Below, in pieces: positions 1 to 27,523 of a stretch of 64,000 bases of DNA (the first letter of the stretch is position 1; every line of letters starts with the position of its first letter). The notes below the pieces were generated by a model. It worked only from the letters and a program-made list of their open reading frames with translations. It was not told where the DNA came from and searched no databases. Location of the stretch: positions 186,001 to 250,000 of the forward strand of contig NZ_MWQH01000005.1 of the NCBI RefSeq assembly GCF_002210295.1, in the 5' to 3' direction. A program made the position numbers and the translations under genes. The stretch is from Fibrobacter sp. UWB5. GTDB taxonomy: Bacteria; Fibrobacterota; Fibrobacteria; Fibrobacterales; Fibrobacteraceae.

Positions 1-996
1 CAAGTCTTCGCTATCCACCACGCCGCGCACAAAGCGGAGCCAAGGCGGCAGCAGGTCCTTGCAGTCGTCCATGATAAAGACCTTCTTCACGTAGAGCTTG
101 AGGCCATGCAAAGCATCGTTGTGCCAAATGTTGAACGGGGCCTTCGACGGAATATACACGAGGCTCCAGAATTCCTGGGAACCTTCGGCGTGGCTGTGGC
201 TCCAGGCGGCCGGTTCGTCGGCTTCGTGGCTGATGACGTTGTAGAAATCCTTGTACTGTTCTTCGGTGACTTCCTTTTCGCTCTGGCGCCACAAGGCCTG
301 CTTTTCGTTCAGGCGTTCTTCGGGCTTTTCTTCGATTTCGCCCTTGTCGTTCTTGGAGGCTTCCGGGTGGAAGTAGATGCCGTAGCTCACGAAGCCGCTG
401 TACTTCTGGACGATGTCCTTGATTTTCCATTCGCTGGCGAATTCTTCGGCGTCTTCGTCATCCTTCAGGTACAAAGTAATCTTGGTGCCGACCTTGTCGA
501 GCGGTGCTTCAGAAATCTCGAAGTCGCCGGTGCCTTCGGAGGACCACATGTAGCCCTGAGTTTCGCCTGCCTTAAGAGTCAAGACTTCGACCTTCTTGGC
601 GACCATGAACACAGAGTAGAAACCCACACCGAACTGGCCGATGAGATCGACGCTGCCCTTGTCGCCTTCCTTGAGGTTCTTGATGAAATTCTTGGTGCCG
701 CTACGGGCGATGGTACCGAGGCAGTTGATCAAGTCTTCCTTGTTCATGCCGATACCGTTGTCTTCCACGACGATTCTCTTGCCTTCCTTGTTCACCGAGA
801 TGTCGATGCGGAGCTGCGTGCCCTGCGGAAGCAAGTCGGCGTTCGAGAGCGAGAGGAAACGACGCTTGTCGAGTGCATCCGCCGCGTTGGAAACAAGCTC
901 GCGGAGGAAGATTTCCTTGTTGCTATAAAGGGAGTTGATCATCAAGTTCAGCATGTCGCGAACTTCGGTCTGGAATTCCATCTTCTCTGTTGCCAT
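1..996 (-). CDS. htpG: Chaperone HtpG (Hsp90 family), 3' end cut off by window edge
   Basis: This is the ATP-dependent cytosolic chaperone HtpG, the bacterial Hsp90. About 332 N-terminal residues lie in the window and the gene continues beyond position 1. The GHKL ATPase domain is clear: the Asn of the N-box in ELVSNAADALDKR, the G1 box DNGIGM and the lid/G2 box GQFGVGFYS are all present, so ATP binding should be intact. The middle domain starts around residue 230 and is recognisable up to the edge (FNIWH, KLYVKKVFI). The ATG at 996 is preceded by GGAG about 7 nt upstream, so this gene uses an ordinary ribosome-binding site. Nothing looks damaged. Its neighbour uppP is a separate unit, with a terminator between them. 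Confidence 0.97.
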   Translation of the reverse strand, partial: MATEKMEFQTEVRDMLNLMINSLYSNKEIFLRELVSNAADALDKRRFLSLSNADLLPQGTQLRIDISVNKEGKRIVVEDNGIGMNKEDLINCLGTIARSGTKNFIKNLKEGDKGSVDLIGQFGVGFYSVFMVAKKVEVLTLKAGETQGYMWSSEGTGDFEISEAPLDKVGTKITLYLKDDEDAEEFASEWKIKDIVQKYSGFVSYGIYFHPEASKNDKGEIEEKPEERLNEKQALWRQSEKEVTEEQYKDFYNVISHEADEPAAWSHSHAEGSQEFWSLVYIPSKAPFNIWHNDALHGLKLYVKKVFIMDDCKDLLPPWLRFVRGVVDSEDL

Positions 997-1172
997 TATT
1001 TATCTCCATTTATCGTTAAAATTTGAAGCGAATTAGCAAAACCATGTTTCATTTTGAAACAAAATCTACTTTCCGCTTTGTTTTCGCACTAGTATTTGCA
1101 AGAACCATGCCAACACAGGACCGTTCGTGCTCATTGCCACTAAGCAATACGAACGCACTCACTCTCGCAACC

Positions 1173-20279: not shown

Positions 20280-20495
20280 CTACTCCCAACTCATGTTCAG
20301 TTTGCGTTTTGTATTTGCACAATCCGTCAAATACGAATCTATCAACACCTGATACGGAATACCGAGTTCAGTAGCCATTTTTTTGAAATAGTCAATTGTT
20401 TCAGAATTCAACCTTATTGTTATTTGTTTTTTCAGGAACTTTGCATAAGGATTCTTCTTGGCCTTCATTTTTGAAAAATCATATTCCTTCTTCAT
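20280..20495 (-). CDS. brnA: BrnA-like antitoxin
   Basis: This 71-residue protein matches the BrnA antitoxin family, with KKQITIRLNSETIDYFKKMATELGIPYQ.. split into a strand and two helices, as in ribbon-helix-helix (CopG/MetJ-type) DNA-binding antitoxins. It should neutralise BrnT and repress the operon. The start is the ATG at 20495: AAGGAG lies 7 nt upstream, and the ATG overlaps the TGA of brnT as ATGA. A longer frame to 20522 would lie inside brnT and has no ribosome site. The toxin-first gene order is the standard one for this family. Confidence 0.87.
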   Translation of the reverse strand: MKKEYDFSKMKAKKNPYAKFLKKQITIRLNSETIDYFKKMATELGIPYQVLIDSYLTDCANTKRKLNMSWE

Positions 20496-20806
20496 AAGCA
20501 ATCTCCTTTTCTTGCGTTCCAATAATATTGAAATTCCTTTCTAGTCGCTTTTCGGGCACTGATGATGCGATTTATCAACTGTTCGGAAACAATCCCGCTT
20601 CGTTCTGTAAATACAACAACCAAAGTCCTCAATTGATTTGACAAACCGACAAGAATTGATCTTTCTTCTTGCGCAGAATGTTCGGCGTCAAAGAAAACTC
20701 TTGCATGGTCATCTTCAAAACAAGTTTTAGCCTCCTCAAATGAAATACCATGTTTCTTTTGATTTGATGCATTTTTCTTGTCGTCCCAGACGAATTCTAC
20801 TTGCAT
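20492..20806 (-). CDS. brnT: BrnT-family ribonuclease toxin
   Basis: This 104-residue protein matches BrnT, a RelE-fold ribonuclease toxin. The family pattern is clear: FVWDDKKNASNQKKHGISFEEA near the N-terminus, a central EERSILVGLS strand, VVVFTERSG, and the closing IISARKATRKEFQYY. GAGG lies about 8 nt before the ATG at 20806. It is translationally coupled to brnA through an ATGA overlap. A 19-bp palindrome in the upstream promoter region is a likely binding site for the antitoxin complex. Confidence 0.88.
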   Translation of the reverse strand: MQVEFVWDDKKNASNQKKHGISFEEAKTCFEDDHARVFFDAEHSAQEERSILVGLSNQLRTLVVVFTERSGIVSEQLINRIISARKATRKEFQYYWNARKGDCL

Positions 20807-22655: not shown

Positions 22656-22759
22656 AAAAATAATCGCAATTTTGCAATCAGTTGATTGCACGCACCAGCC
22701 ATTTCTTGTTTTATCTTTTGCCAAGAATTAAGGAAATTGCGAAAAATGACAAGACCGCC

Positions 22760-22794
22760 CACTTTACAACATTTACACCACAGACACTTTACAA
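22760..22794. repeat. Two direct copies of CACTTTACAA upstream of dinJ
   Basis: CACTTTACAA occurs at 22760-22769 and 22785-22794, 25 nt apart. ACTTTACAAC and its reverse complement recur upstream of clpB (24766-24775, 24858-24866). This spacing would suit a dimeric regulator. Confidence 0.45.
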
Positions 22795-22810
22795 ACGCAA
22801 CCAATTGTTG

Positions 22811-22823
22811 TATATTTAGAGGT
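22811..22823 (+). promoter_or_regulatory. Leaderless-type -10 for dinJ
   Basis: TATATT (22811-22816) ends exactly 7 nt before the ATG at 22824. The 7-nt gap contains AGAGG, so a short leader with a Shine-Dalgarno is an alternative reading. Confidence 0.5.
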
Positions 22824-23099
22824 ATGAGTACCGTGGTAACAAACATACGAATCGACAAAGAGCTCAAGGCTCAGGCAACCGAACTATTCAACGACTTGGG
22901 CTTGACGCTTTCCCAGGCGTTTACGGTTTTCCTGAAGCAAGCCATTCTGCACCACGGCCTGCCTTTTGCCGTTACAAGACCTCCGTCCAAAGAACTCCTC
23001 GAAGCCATCAAGGAAGGCGAAGAACTCGCCCACGATCCTAATGCAAAAACTTATGCTTCGTTCGACGAATTGCTTGAGGAACTGGACATAAAAAAATGA
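22824..23099 (+). CDS. dinJ: RelB/DinJ-family antitoxin
   Basis: This 91-residue protein matches the DinJ/RelB antitoxin family. The N-terminal ribbon-helix-helix part reads TNIRIDKELKAQATELFNDLGLTLSQAFTVF (split across strand and helices) and the C-terminal toxin-binding tail is acidic. It should bind and block the YafQ-type toxin encoded next and repress the operon as a complex. The ATG at 22824 is chosen because the family begins here. Upstream in-frame sequence crosses the promoter. Its TGA overlaps the toxin ATG. Confidence 0.9.
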   Translation: MSTVVTNIRIDKELKAQATELFNDLGLTLSQAFTVFLKQAILHHGLPFAVTRPPSKELLEAIKEGEELAHDPNAKTYASFDELLEELDIKK

Positions 23100-23398
23100 A
23101 CTCCAAAGACGGATTCAAGTATAATTTACGGATTACAAACCGCTTCAAAAAGCACCTTAAACAAATTGCCAAAAGAAACATTGAACACGTCAGCAAGATT
23201 GAAGGCGTCGTTAACTCCCTGCAAAAAGGAGAAACTCTTGAAGCTCGATTTAAGGACCATGCTTTAGTCGGAAAATGGAACGGCCATAGGGAATGCCACA
23301 TTCTTCCCGATCTTTTGTTAATCTACAAAATCGAAGAAAACATTCTTATTCTAGAACTTGTAGACACCGGCTCTCACGCCGATTTATTCGGGAAATAA
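23096..23398 (+). CDS. yafQ: YafQ-family ribonuclease toxin
   Basis: This 100-residue protein matches the YafQ branch of RelE-fold toxins, ribosome-dependent mRNA nucleases. Family landmarks are HALVGKWNGHRECHILPDLL (the RECH segment and catalytic His region), LIYKIEE, and the terminal DTGSHADLFGK with its functional His. Length is normal and key residues are present, so it is probably active. The ATG overlaps the antitoxin stop as ATGA. Its own stop directly abuts the convergent FISUMP gene. Confidence 0.9.
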   Translation: MNSKDGFKYNLRITNRFKKHLKQIAKRNIEHVSKIEGVVNSLQKGETLEARFKDHALVGKWNGHRECHILPDLLLIYKIEENILILELVDTGSHADLFGK

Positions 23399-24045: not shown

Positions 24046-24618
24046 ATGTCTATATCTAAAACTATCGCCGCATTCCTTTGCGCAGCAGCCTTCTGCTTTG
24101 CCGCCAACGATTCGACCGCAAAAGCCCAAGCCCCCGCACAGGCTAGCACCCAGGCTCCCGCAATTTCGCAAGAAGAAATGTTGATTTTCAAGACTCTACT
24201 ACAAACCCCGCTTTTCAAGGACAACTTTGTTCAATCATGCACCGTGCAATCCATGGAATGGCTGGGCGTGAACCAAGCCGACAAAACCTGCAAATGCGCC
24301 TACGACCGCCTTGTTAGAGACGGCAAGTTCATCAACCAGATTATGAGCTCGATCAACGGCGACAACATCGATTTTGAAAAATGGGGATTTGAATTTATCG
24401 AGCCCTGCATTCCCCAGAACTACCCCGCCGAAACGGACAACGCCTTCGTGAAAGAATGCCTGAAAGCCGGCGATGTAGACAAAGCGACCTGCGAATGCGT
24501 GCTGAAATCAATCAAGAAAGACTACACCGTGCGCGACCTGATGAAAACCGCCTTTGAAGACCAGAAAAAGCTGGAAGTCGACTTGATGCTCAAGGCCGCA
24601 CAGTGCCTCTCGAAATAA
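24046..24618 (+). CDS. Secreted Cys-rich protein with an internal duplication, unknown function
   Basis: I do not recognise this 190-residue protein. It has a signal peptide (MSISKTIAAFLCAAAFCFA) and an Ala/Gln/Pro stretch. Two similar cysteine units follow: C-x20-CKCAYDRLVRDGKF (Cys near residues 65-87) and C-x11-CECVLKSIKKDYT (near 148-162). Both have a CxC followed by a helix, and both are preceded by another Cys. Six to eight cysteines in a secreted protein suggest disulfides. GGAG lies 4 nt before the ATG. A terminator follows. No homolog family comes to mind. Confidence 0.7.
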   Translation: MSISKTIAAFLCAAAFCFAANDSTAKAQAPAQASTQAPAISQEEMLIFKTLLQTPLFKDNFVQSCTVQSMEWLGVNQADKTCKCAYDRLVRDGKFINQIMSSINGDNIDFEKWGFEFIEPCIPQNYPAETDNAFVKECLKAGDVDKATCECVLKSIKKDYTVRDLMKTAFEDQKKLEVDLMLKAAQCLSK

Positions 24619-24644
24619 CTCAGGGAAAAACACCCTTATAAAAA

Positions 24645-24680
24645 AACTAACGGCATCCCCCCCAAGGGATGCCGTAGTTG
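24645..24680 (+). terminator. Hairpin after the gene at 24046
   Basis: AACTAACGGCATCCC pairs with GGGATGCCGTAGTT almost perfectly. The T-tract afterwards is weak (GTTGGTGTTT), so termination efficiency is uncertain. Confidence 0.65.
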
Positions 24681-24755
24681 GTGTTTGGGATGTTTGGTTT
24701 CGTATCCATAAGATAGATTCGTACAGGGGCAAAAGGTATAGTTGTAGGACATAAA

Positions 24756-24866
24756 GTGTTGTTGTACTTTACAACACCCCAACGTCTCAAAATGAGCCAA
24801 AATGGCGTAAATTTTTGAAAAAAAGGCTTTTTTTTATTAAACAGCCCAAAAGAAACCGTTGTAAAG
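24756..24866. promoter_or_regulatory. Inverted CTTTACAAC/GTTGTAAAG motifs upstream of clpB
   Basis: GTGTTGT and ACAACAC form an inverted repeat at 24756-24777 that includes ACTTTACAAC (24766-24775). GTTGTAAAG recurs in opposite orientation at 24858-24866. These lie about 60-170 nt upstream of the sigma-54 promoter, where enhancer-binding activators usually bind. The assignment as enhancer sites is inference. Confidence 0.4.
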
Positions 24867-24924
24867 CACCTGTTTTTAGGCTAAAAATCGTCAAAAAAAG
24901 CCATTTTTCCCTATTTCGGGGCTT

Positions 24925-24940
24925 TGGCACGGCCTTTGCA
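24925..24940 (+). promoter_or_regulatory. Sigma-54 (RpoN) promoter of clpB
   Basis: TGGCACG-N4-TTGCA matches the sigma-54 consensus at every position, with GG (24926-24927) and GC (24938-24939) separated by the required 10 nt. Transcription would start near 24951, about 20 nt before the clpB ATG, leaving the AGAGGA ribosome site (24961-24966) in the leader. Confidence 0.8.
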
Positions 24941-24970
24941 TATATATGGCGGTAAAAAAGAGAGGAAAAT

Positions 24971-27523
24971 ATGTCCGATTTTAATAACGATGCAGAAAAG
25001 GTGTTGGCCAAGGCGCAGAGCCTGCGTGACCGTTGTTCGCATTCCTACCTGGGTGCGGCCCATTTGGCGGTCGGCCTTGTAGAAGGCCCAGATGCCACCC
25101 TGAAGAAACTTTATAAGTCCAAGGGCGCGAAGACCAACGAGCTCCGCGGCAAATTGGAACCGTTCGTGCAGAAGATTCCGCGCATGGAAGGCGTGAACCC
25201 CGACGTGGAACCTGATAACGACTTGAACCGTATTTTGCGTGCTTCCGTGCAGGCGGCGCGCCAGGTGAACCGCATGGTGACCCCGGGCGATATGCTCGTG
25301 GCCTTGATGAAGTTCTCGGGCGACCGTGGCCTTGCGAAGGTGTTCGAAGATGCGCTCGGTTCCGTGGAAGTCGTGGAAACCTGGCTTTCGGACCCGTTTG
25401 CGGGTGCCGCCAATGCCGAGGAACAGTCTCCGCTGAAACTCTATGGCCGTGAACTCGTGGAAATGGCTGCCGACGGAAAGCTTTCGCCGGTGATTGGCCG
25501 TGAAGAAGAAATCCGCCGCGTCATCTTGATCTTGAGCCGAAAGACGAAAAACAACCCGTGCCTGGTCGGTGAACCGGGCGTGGGTAAGACCGCCATTGTC
25601 GAAGGGCTCGCTGAGCGAATCTATCGCGGCGACGTGCCTGACGCTTTGAAGGGCAAGAAGTTGTTTGCGCTCGATTTGTCTGCCTTGATGGCGGGCGCAA
25701 AGTACCGCGGCGATTTCGAAGAACGTTTGAAAGCCGTGCTGGACGCACTGGAAGAAGACGGCAACACCTTGCTGTTCATCGATGAAATCCACACCATCGT
25801 GGGTGCAGGCAAGACCGAGGGCTCCATGGACTTGGGCAACATGCTCAAGCCGAAACTGGCCCGTGGTGAACTGCACTGCATCGGTGCGACGACCACGCAG
25901 GAATACCGCAAATACATCGAGAAGGATTCCGCATTGGAACGTCGTTTCCAGCCCGTGCAGGTTGACGAGCCGAGCGAAGAGGAATCCATTTCAATTTTGC
26001 GTGGCATTAAGGACGGCTTTGATGCGCACCATGGCGTGCGTCTGCACGACAACGCGCTTGTGGCGGCGGTGAAACTTTCGAACCGCTACATCAGTGACCG
26101 TTTCTTGCCGGACAAGGCCATTGACCTGATTGACGAGGCGGCAAGCCTTGTGAAGACGCAGATGGACACCGTGCCCGAAGCCTTGGACACCTTGCAGCGT
26201 AAGGAACTCCAGATGAAAATCGAGGAGCAGGCCTTGGCGAAGGAAACCGACGACACCAGCGTAAAGCGCCTGAAAGAGTTGCGTGAAGAACTCGCGACGA
26301 CAGATGCTGCAGTCAAGCTCATGCAGGACCGTTGGCAAGAAAGGCGCGCGAAGAATGCCGAGTTGCAGGGCCTCAAGAAGTCCTTGCAGCAGGCGAAGGA
26401 CGAGATGGAGCAGGCCGAAGCCCGCTATGACTTGAACCGCGCCGCCGAACTCAAGTACAACAAGATTGTGAACCTCGAAAAGGAAATCGCCGCGAAGACC
26501 GAAGAAATCAAGAAGTCCGCAAGCGACGGCGACCTGAGCGAAGAGGTGACCGAAGAGACGATTGCCCTCGTGGTGAGCCGTTGGACCGGAATTCCTGTCA
26601 CGAAACTTTGTGAAGGCGAGAAGGCCAAGTTGTTGCACTTGGACGAACGCCTGCACGCCCGCGTGATAGGCCAGGACGAAGCCGTCGAGGCGGTTTCGGA
26701 AGCGATTCTGCGTAACCGTAGCGGACTTAGCCGCGAAAATGCGCCGATCGGTAGCTTCTTGTTCCTGGGCCCGACGGGTGTGGGCAAGACGGAACTTGCG
26801 AAGGCGCTTGCCGTGGAACTGTTCGACGACGAGAATGCGCTGGTGCGTATCGACATGAGCGAATACATGGAAAAGCACAGCGTTTCGCGACTCATTGGCG
26901 CGCCTCCGGGATACGTGGGCTACGAAGAAGGCGGCCAGCTGACCGAAGCCGTGCGTACGCATCCGTACTGCGTGATTCTGCTCGACGAAATCGAGAAGGC
27001 TCACCCCGACGTGTTCAACACGCTGTTGCAGGTGCTTGACGATGGTCGTCTGACCGATGGCAAGGGCCGTACCGTGAACTTCAAGAACACCTTGATCTTG
27101 ATGACTTCGAACCTGGGCGCCGCTCATTTCCAGAACCGCGCAGGTGATGCAAAGCCTGTGACCTTGAAGGAAATCGAGCCGGAACTCCGTGGTTTCTTCA
27201 GGCCGGAATTCCTGAACCGCTTGGACGAAGTGCTGGTATTCCAGAGTTTAACGAAGCCGCAAATCAAGGACATCGTGAAGCTGAAATTCAAGGGCCTCGC
27301 CGAACGCGCTGCCCGTCAGGATTTGCAGCTCACGCTGACCGACAAGGCGCTCGAAGCGATTGCCGACGGTGCTTACCAGCCGGAATTCGGTGCACGTCCG
27401 ATCCAGCGTTATCTGGAACGGAACGTGGAACGCCCGCTGAGCCATGCAATCCTCGCTGGCGAAGTGAGTGCCGCAAAGCCGGTCACCATCGACTACGATG
27501 GAACTACGTTCACCGTGAAGTAA
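24971..27523 (+). CDS. clpB: ClpB disaggregase
   Basis: ClpB is the hexameric AAA+ disaggregase that works with DnaK to resolubilise aggregated proteins. The 850 residues hold the Clp N-domain (1-150), a first AAA+ module (Walker A GEPGVGKT near 199, Walker B LLFIDEIH), the coiled-coil middle domain (about 395-515, diagnostic for ClpB against ClpA/C), and a second AAA+ module (Walker A GPTGVGKT near 600, Walker [10 protein letters not shown], sensor [10 protein letters not shown]). All catalytic motifs look intact. A sigma-54 promoter lies upstream, which is unusual because clpB is normally under sigma-32, HrcA/CIRCE or CtsR control. It is a single gene ending in a strong terminator. Confidence 0.97.

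What the first reader, a model, noticed from the sequence alone, without database searches (positions are those of the whole stretch)
24925..24940. Perfect sigma-54 promoter for the disaggregase gene clpB
TGGCACG-N4-TTGCA fits the RpoN consensus fully, with correct GG-N10-GC spacing and a start site that leaves the ribosome site in the leader. Heat-shock clpB is normally driven by sigma-32 or relieved from HrcA/CtsR repression. This suggests a different stress-response wiring in this lineage.
Basis: partly seen in the sequence, partly recalled or inferred. Interest (0 to 1): 0.62.

Follow-up and report, generated by a model that had tools for sequence, protein, structure and literature searches.

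The report
Sigma-54 switch for Fibrobacter chaperone genes
In the cellulose-degrading bacterium Fibrobacter, the protein-disaggregase gene clpB and nearly every other core chaperone gene carry the same conserved sigma-54 promoter, in a lineage that has lost the usual HrcA repressor, so its protein-folding stress response appears to run on an activator-driven switch previously mapped mainly in Flavobacterium.

Summary
TGGCACGGCCTTTGCA lies at 24925-24940, beginning 46 nt before the clpB ATG, in a Fibrobacter-type genome that encodes rpoN. It is one of only 9 perfect genomic matches (reversed control 0), all directly upstream of genes, and is conserved at 11-12 of 12 positions in 25 of 25 Fibrobacter clpB loci read, while the spacer varies.

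The larger finding: clpB is one of a set. Sigma-54 elements also precede dnaK-dnaJ, groES-groEL, htpG (in this window), grpE and hsp20; those at dnaK, groES and htpG are conserved across the genus and accompanied by a dyad, TGTTTC-N5-GAAACA, typical of sigma-54 activator sites. HrcA is absent from all 39 genomes of the order, but present in 12 of 13 class-level relatives, which use CIRCE at groES. A candidate activator, with a receiver lacking its phospho-acceptor, is encoded behind dnaK in those relatives and conserved in Fibrobacter.

Best reading: an activator-driven sigma-54 chaperone regulon that replaced HrcA control. Not shown: transcription starts, heat induction, activator binding; the dyad is not above chance at clpB itself. 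Precedent: Flavobacterium psychrophilum has mapped sigma-54 starts at the same genes, so the kind is known; the phylum, dyad and candidate activator appear new.

The parts
24925..24940 (+). sigma-54 -24/-12 promoter element of clpB, TGGCACG-GCCT-TTGCA
   Evidence: sequence; 1 of 9 perfect genomic matches, reversed control 0; conserved in 25/25 Fibrobacter clpB loci read
24951..24970 (+). predicted start (about 24951) and leader of clpB with ribosome site GAGAGG 24960-24965
   Evidence: inferred from -12 spacing on the sequence; start not mapped
24780..24827 (+). moderately conserved upstream block about 100-145 bp 5' of the -24 element (GTCTCAAAATGAGCC...GCGTAAATTTTTGAAAA): possible but unproven activator site of clpB
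   Evidence: MAFFT alignment of clpB upstream regions; dyad scores across the genus 8-10 of 12, not above shuffles
24971..27523 (+). clpB, 850 aa disaggregase
   Evidence: best NCBIfam match TIGR03346 ClpB (1143.9 bits, below its cut-off of 1232.1); Pfam AAA_2, AAA_lid_9, ClpB_D2-small; 88-100% identical full-length copies across Fibrobacter
1097..1112 (-). sigma-54 element of htpG, TGGCATGGTTCTTGCA (11/12)
   Evidence: conserved at 10-12/12 in 19 of 19 Fibrobacter htpG loci
1045..1061 (-). dyad TGTTTCAAAATGAAACA in the htpG leader, the only perfect genomic copy of TGTTTC-N5-GAAACA
   Evidence: 11-12/12 and 51-52 bp 3' of the promoter start in 19 of 19 genomes
1..996 (-). htpG (Hsp90), runs off the window edge
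   Evidence: NF003555 above cut-off

Best explanation
The element is a genuine, selected sigma-54 promoter of clpB and belongs to a regulon that covers the core cytosolic chaperones of Fibrobacter: clpB, dnaK-dnaJ, grpE, groES-groEL, htpG and hsp20. Shown here by sequence: each of these has a consensus or near-consensus -24/-12 site; three of them besides clpB (dnaK, groES, htpG) have it conserved across the genus and also carry a TGTTTC-N5-GAAACA dyad far above chance. Inferred: a dedicated NtrC-family enhancer-binding protein binds that dyad and opens the promoter by ATP hydrolysis under protein-folding stress, in place of relief from HrcA repression. The best candidate is the protein at own-genome C1:685060-686541 (L220:3076-4542), with a receiver-like domain lacking the phospho-acceptor Asp, a Sigma54_activat AAA+ domain and a Fis-type HTH. 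Its orthologues occur in every Fibrobacter genome searched, lie downstream of dnaK in HrcA-bearing relatives, and behind dnaK in one sister family. How it senses stress is unknown: since the receiver probably cannot be phosphorylated, control through the neighbouring kinase/receiver pair or by free chaperone are both open. Confidence by step: sigma-54 use at clpB about 0.93; shared chaperone regulon about 0.9; this activator about 0.65; heat as the inducing signal about 0.6.
For: rpoN present. Perfect sites 9 against 0 for the reversed control, all upstream of genes, including the classic sigma-54 targets glnN, glnB-amt and gltB. clpB site 11-12/12 in 25/25 with varying spacer, and 12/12 in a sister family, G037. 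dnaK 12/12 in 24/24; htpG 10-12/12 in 19/19 and groES 10-12/12 in 20/20; grpE 11/12 and hsp20 12/12 in the own genome. Dyad at dnaK, groES and htpG; a scan of 84,980 species returns dyad plus sigma-54 site in Fibrobacter only at dnaK and grpE wherever the gene could be read. HrcA 0/39 in the order, 12/13 in class-level relatives. At groES: CIRCE 16-18/18 and sigma-54 at most 10/12 in 12 HrcA+ loci, against sigma-54 11-12/12 and CIRCE at most 10/18 in 5 HrcA- loci outside Fibrobacter. Activator: orthologue in 37/37 Fibrobacter, behind dnaK in G037, downstream of dnaK in ten HrcA+ genomes, one clade with support 0.978 and a shared recognition helix ISR[AS]T[LI]WRK. No sigma-70-like promoter in 24600-25000.
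Against: No transcript data. The dyad at clpB is not above chance (8-10/12 across the genus, shuffled mean 8.1), so clpB may use another activator or a degenerate site. Dyad position differs between genes: upstream at dnaK and groES, but inside the leader at htpG and 8 bp from the -24 element at the dnaK operon of G037, which is unusual for an enhancer. Six other enhancer-binding proteins exist in the genome. HrcA-bearing relatives keep the activator and partly the dyad at groES without a visible sigma-54 site there.
Confidence: 0.82

Rival explanations
1. The sigma-54 promoters are real, but the dyad TGTTTC-N5-GAAACA is an operator for a repressor (a functional stand-in for HrcA), and the activator is some other enhancer-binding protein.
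For: At htpG the dyad lies at a fixed place downstream of the predicted start in 19/19 genomes, and in the dnaK operon of G037 it almost abuts the -24 element: both are natural operator positions.
Against: At groES the dyads lie about 45-210 bp upstream of the promoter at varying distance and often in pairs, and at dnaK 48 and 97 bp upstream, which suits an enhancer. The 6-5-6 dyad is the geometry of NtrC sites (general knowledge), and the same dyad with a sigma-54 core precedes prpB in Oxalobacteraceae and Stenotrophomonas, genes known to be run by the enhancer-binding protein PrpR (general knowledge).
Confidence: 0.15
2. clpB belongs to a different sigma-54 circuit (nitrogen or other) and is not switched on together with the other chaperones.
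For: The dyad is not significant at clpB; the same perfect sites precede glnN, glnB-amt and gltB. In Flavobacterium psychrophilum clpB falls in a different co-expression cluster (B415) from dnaK, groESL, grpE and htpG (B254) (PMC9723704).
Against: Six core chaperone operons all carry sigma-54 elements, and the same set including clpB has mapped sigma-54 starts in F. psychrophilum.
Confidence: 0.2
3. The match is a chance resemblance and clpB is transcribed from an unrecognised housekeeping promoter.
For: Housekeeping promoters of Fibrobacter may not fit the E. coli consensus used in the scan.
Against: Conservation of the specified bases in 25/25 loci with a free spacer, the 9 against 0 control, and the same element at a sister family's clpB.
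Confidence: 0.02

Closest known systems
Sigma-54 (SM4) chaperone promoters of Flavobacterium psychrophilum (PMC9723704)
   Same: Mapped transcription starts with -24/-12 elements at groESL, dnaK, grpE-dnaJ, htpG and clpB: the same genes.
   Different: A different phylum (Bacteroidota); that set also contains lon and skp; in the passages read the paper names no activator or activator site, and its main text does not mention HrcA or Fibrobacter.
Predicted sigma-54 chaperone enrichment in Bacteroidota and Planctomycetota (PMC12316311)
   Same: GroEL, GroES, GrpE, DnaK, DnaJ, Hsp20, Hsp90 and ATP-dependent protease families enriched behind predicted sigma-54 promoters.
   Different: Statistical, by COG; Fibrobacter is not mentioned in its main text.
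[quoted passage not shown]
   Same: A sigma-54 promoter on the grpE-dnaK operon.
   Different: HrcA and CIRCE are kept and do the heat control; rpoN falls on heat shock.
Myxococcus xanthus HsfBA and lonD (PMC9109919, citing Ueki and Inouye 2002)
   Same: An NtrC-like regulator directly drives a heat-shock gene.
   Different: One protease gene and a true phosphorelay; here chaperones and a receiver without the phospho-acceptor.
HrcA/CIRCE repression
   Same: CIRCE stands at groES in the HrcA-bearing relatives of this phylum.
   Different: Gene and operator both absent in Fibrobacter.

Membership tests
sigma-54 dependent promoter | -24/-12 element with invariant GG-N10-GC | tested here: met
sigma-54 dependent promoter | rpoN with AID, core-binding and DNA-binding domains in the genome | tested here: met
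sigma-54 dependent promoter | at least one enhancer-binding activator in the genome | tested here: met
   seven proteins with a strong Sigma54_activat domain (two further weak hits are Clp ATPases)
sigma-54 dependent promoter | upstream activator site at clpB | tested here: inconclusive
   conserved block, but dyad score not above shuffles
sigma-54 dependent promoter | mapped start about 12 nt after the GC, lost without rpoN | not testable with these tools
   needs RNA data
sigma-54 chaperone regulon as in Flavobacterium | sigma-54 elements at clpB, dnaK, groESL, grpE, htpG | tested here: met
sigma-54 chaperone regulon as in Flavobacterium | same activator and dyad in both phyla | not tested
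   no Bacteroidota genome with mapped starts was at hand; the exact-match scan found the arrangement at dnaK also in two unclassified MAGs (L346, L347)
HrcA/CIRCE regulon | hrcA gene | tested here: not met
   0 of 39 genomes of the order
HrcA/CIRCE regulon | CIRCE operator at chaperone genes | tested here: not met
   best 12/18 in 88 Fibrobacter upstream regions, 10/18 at the window's clpB
sigma-32 regulon | rpoH in the genome | not tested
   only one small sigma-70-type factor was scanned (L002; RpoS and RpoH models far below cut-off on a 157-aa piece)
NtrC-family activator (candidate L220:3076-4542) | Sigma54_activat AAA+ domain and Fis-type HTH | tested here: met
   PF00158 237 bits, PF02954 58 bits
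NtrC-family activator (candidate L220:3076-4542) | GAFTGA loop | tested here: inconclusive
   reads GSYTGS, conserved in Fibrobacter and family f3; GAFTGA or GSFTGA in other members
phosphorylatable response regulator (same protein) | phospho-acceptor Asp in the receiver | tested here: not met
   Glu (IDLAFIEVPFL) in the Fibrobacter sequences read; Response_reg match below cut-off

The most novel reading that the evidence does not exclude
Fibrobacterota possess a dedicated, stress-specific enhancer-binding protein with a non-phosphorylatable receiver that switches on all core chaperones through TGTTTC-N5-GAAACA and sigma-54. It arose beside dnaK alongside HrcA and took over as the sole chaperone control when HrcA was lost, possibly sensing free chaperone as HrcA and sigma-32 do.
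Probability: 0.4. Interest if true: 0.75.

Novelty: new member of a known kind. Interest (0 to 1): 0.56.

Why it matters
Textbook bacterial heat-shock control is sigma-32 or a repressor such as HrcA or CtsR. Here a whole order has lost HrcA and carries sigma-54 elements at its chaperone genes, so this transcription would need an ATP-driven activator and be silent without it. Together with the Flavobacterium data this suggests that sigma-54 chaperone control is a broad feature of this part of the tree. The comparison also names a candidate activator and its site, which makes the open question of how such a regulon senses unfolded protein directly testable.

Tried and rejected
Sigma-70-type promoter upstream of clpB: none in the scan. 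CIRCE at clpB, dnaK, groES and htpG: none. The palindrome TGTTGTA-CTT-TACAACA about 150 bp upstream of the clpB promoter looked like an activator site but occurs only in the closest relatives, so it was dropped. The TGTTTC dyad as the clpB activator site: not above chance. Dyads in hrcA and grpE of HrcA-bearing relatives (L298, L301, L303, L304, L307) fall within what reads as conserved coding sequence and were not counted. Genome-wide the dyad with up to 1 mismatch is not enriched (15 places against 13 for the reversed control); only its co-location with chaperone promoters is informative. A near-consensus site 28-31 nt before the clpB ATG in family f3 was not counted, because the implied leader would be too short for the visible ribosome site. 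The other six enhancer-binding proteins of the genome do not track the dyad across the genomes compared.

Full report
WHAT WAS CLAIMED AND WHETHER IT IS THERE. The element TGGCACGGCCTTTGCA is exactly at 24925-24940. It has GG-N10-GC spacing and begins 46 nt before the ATG of an 850-aa ClpB (TIGR03346 is the best NCBIfam match, 1143.9 bits, slightly below its cut-off of 1232.1). Counting the C of the -12 GC as -12 places the start near 24951, with GAGAGG in a leader of about 20 nt. The window lies in a 3.36-Mb genome. I take it to be a Fibrobacter: the dnaK promoter region matches named Fibrobacter records and its lipoproteins carry the Ser-rich linkers seen in that genus (general knowledge).

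MORE THAN CHANCE. With two mismatches allowed the window has 16 matches against 11.9 expected, so near-matches mean little. Perfect matches do: 9 in the genome, 0 for the reversed pattern; over the own genome and 36 congeners I sum 409 against 29 from the table. All nine precede a gene in the right orientation, among them the usual sigma-54 targets glnN, glnB-amt and gltB, which act as an internal positive control for the motif. With one mismatch the count is 53 against 28. rpoN is present with all three domains and is found in every one of 24 relatives tested.

CONSERVATION AT clpB. Of 30 clpB loci fetched from the own genome and congeners, 25 could be read automatically. The best upstream site scores 12/12 in 21 and 11/12 in 4, at the same place except where an insertion separates promoter and gene in two. 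The four spacer bases vary freely while the specified bases do not, apart from C to T at one position. Dinucleotide-shuffled regions reach 11/12 with probability about 0.003 each; the loci are related, so these are not independent trials. The element is also directly upstream of clpB in G037, a different family of the same order, and at 11/12 in G053 and G057, outside the class. Between 24600 and 25000 no sigma-70-like promoter was found.

THE SAME PROMOTER AT OTHER CHAPERONES. All three have it. dnaK: 12/12 in 24 of 24 Fibrobacter genomes. htpG, which lies at the start of this same window (1-996, minus strand), has TGGCATGGTTCTTGCA at 1097-1112, and 10-12/12 in 19 of 19 genomes. groES-groEL: 10-12/12 in 20 of 20. 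In the own genome grpE (11/12) and hsp20 (12/12) have it too, as does secA (11/12). dnaJ follows dnaK on the same strand.

A SHARED DYAD. Upstream of dnaK two copies of TGTTTC-N5-GAAACA stand out. The only perfect copy in the genome is in the htpG leader, and other copies with one mismatch are at dnaK (two) and groES. The motif by itself is not enriched genome-wide (15 places against 13 for the reversed control); its location is what counts. At dnaK, htpG and groES it scores 10-12/12 in all but one region, against a shuffled mean of about 8. A scan of 84,980 species for an exact dyad followed within 25-55 bp by a sigma-54 core gave 57 stretches. In Fibrobacter, where the gene could be read, these were dnaK or grpE; in Fibrobacteria GUT307 groES; in two unclassified MAGs dnaK; and in Oxalobacteraceae and Stenotrophomonas prpB. 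The last are, from general knowledge, targets of the enhancer-binding protein PrpR, so the dyad is of a kind that such proteins bind. clpB itself has only a degenerate block (24780-24827) whose score is not above chance, so its activator site is unresolved.

LOSS OF HrcA. HrcA is absent from all 37 Fibrobacter genomes and both other genomes of the order, and present in 12 of 13 class-level relatives and in G052 and G055 beyond. Twelve groES upstream regions read from HrcA-bearing genomes all have CIRCE at 16-18 of 18 positions and no sigma-54 site above 10/12 (one of them only 103 nt long); five from HrcA-lacking genomes outside Fibrobacter have sigma-54 at 11-12/12 and CIRCE at most 10/18. 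G056 and G058 (HrcA-lacking) have 11/12 sites at groES and dnaK, and G038 at groES and before dnaK. In 88 Fibrobacter upstream regions the best CIRCE score is 12/18. One HrcA-bearing genome, G040, has two dyads and an 11/12 sigma-54 site before the grpE-dnaK operon, so the two systems can coexist.

THE CANDIDATE ACTIVATOR. The genome has seven proteins with a strong Sigma54_activat domain. One, at C1:685060-686541 (L220:3076-4542), is the orthologue of a protein encoded behind dnaK in G037 and 3.6-3.9 kb downstream of the dnaK start in ten HrcA-bearing genomes, with dnaJ between in the two read in full. It occurs in 37 of 37 Fibrobacter genomes (receiver part). In a tree of the activators fetched from nine genomes plus the ten dnaK-linked ones, these proteins form one clade (support 0.978) with one member in each genome; the recognition helix ISR[AS]T[LI]WRK is shared by the members whose C-terminus was complete. 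In Fibrobacter its receiver has Glu where the phospho-acceptor Asp is expected, and it is encoded after a histidine kinase with a long N-terminal part and a canonical receiver protein. That it binds the dyad is an inference from co-distribution and gene neighbourhood.

MECHANISM. Most likely, sigma-54 polymerase waits in a closed complex at the chaperone promoters and the activator, bound to its dyads, opens it on demand. Shown: the promoter elements, their conservation, rpoN, the dyads, the absence of HrcA and CIRCE. Inferred: activator identity, sensing, and heat as the signal. The dyad in the htpG leader and its closeness to the promoter in the dnaK operon of G037 keep a repressor reading open.

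WHAT IS KNOWN. Flavobacterium psychrophilum has mapped starts with sigma-54 elements at groESL, dnaK, grpE-dnaJ, htpG and clpB, without a named activator (PMC9723704). A 2025 survey predicts sigma-54 chaperones in Bacteroidota and Planctomycetota and does not mention Fibrobacter (PMC12316311). Chlamydia has a sigma-54 promoter in tandem on hrcA-grpE-dnaK (PMC8762339), and Myxococcus drives lonD through the NtrC-like HsfA (PMC9109919). Searches for Fibrobacter with sigma-54, HrcA or heat-shock promoters found no title or abstract describing this, within an open-access library only. I therefore file the regulon as a new member of a known kind; the candidate activator, the dyad and the exchange with HrcA are the new parts.

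Noticed in passing
L185 (own genome C11:78138, minus strand): secA has a sigma-54 element (11/12) with a TGTTTC-N5-GAAACA-like dyad (10/12) 26 bp upstream, suggesting that protein export may be tied to the chaperone regulon.
   Followed up: partly
L002 (own genome C1:835303, minus strand): A perfect sigma-54 element precedes a small sigma-70-type factor gene (regions 1.2 and 2 detected), without a dyad: a possible sigma cascade.
   Followed up: partly
L103-L110 (clpB upstream regions of family f3 relatives): A conserved NGGCAY-N5-TTGCT lies only 28-31 nt before the clpB ATG, too close for a normal leader with the visible ribosome site; unexplained.
   Followed up: no
L296, L300, L301, L302 (groES of HrcA-bearing relatives): The TGTTTC dyad also sits about 95-115 bp upstream of CIRCE at groES, where a sigma-70-like rather than a sigma-54 promoter is visible.
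   Followed up: partly
window 24941-24960 and the corresponding positions of other sigma-54 promoters: Fibrobacter sigma-54 promoters tend to share a G-rich step followed by an A run (such as GGCGGTAAAAA or GGGCGAAACAAA) at the predicted start.
   Followed up: no
window 22746-23398 (+) and 20492-20806 (-): By eye, a DinJ/YafQ-like toxin-antitoxin pair and a BrnT-like toxin ORF a few kilobases upstream of clpB.
   Followed up: no
L220:341-3063: The candidate activator is preceded by a histidine kinase and a canonical receiver protein, although its own receiver lacks the phospho-acceptor; what this pair signals to is unclear.
   Followed up: partly
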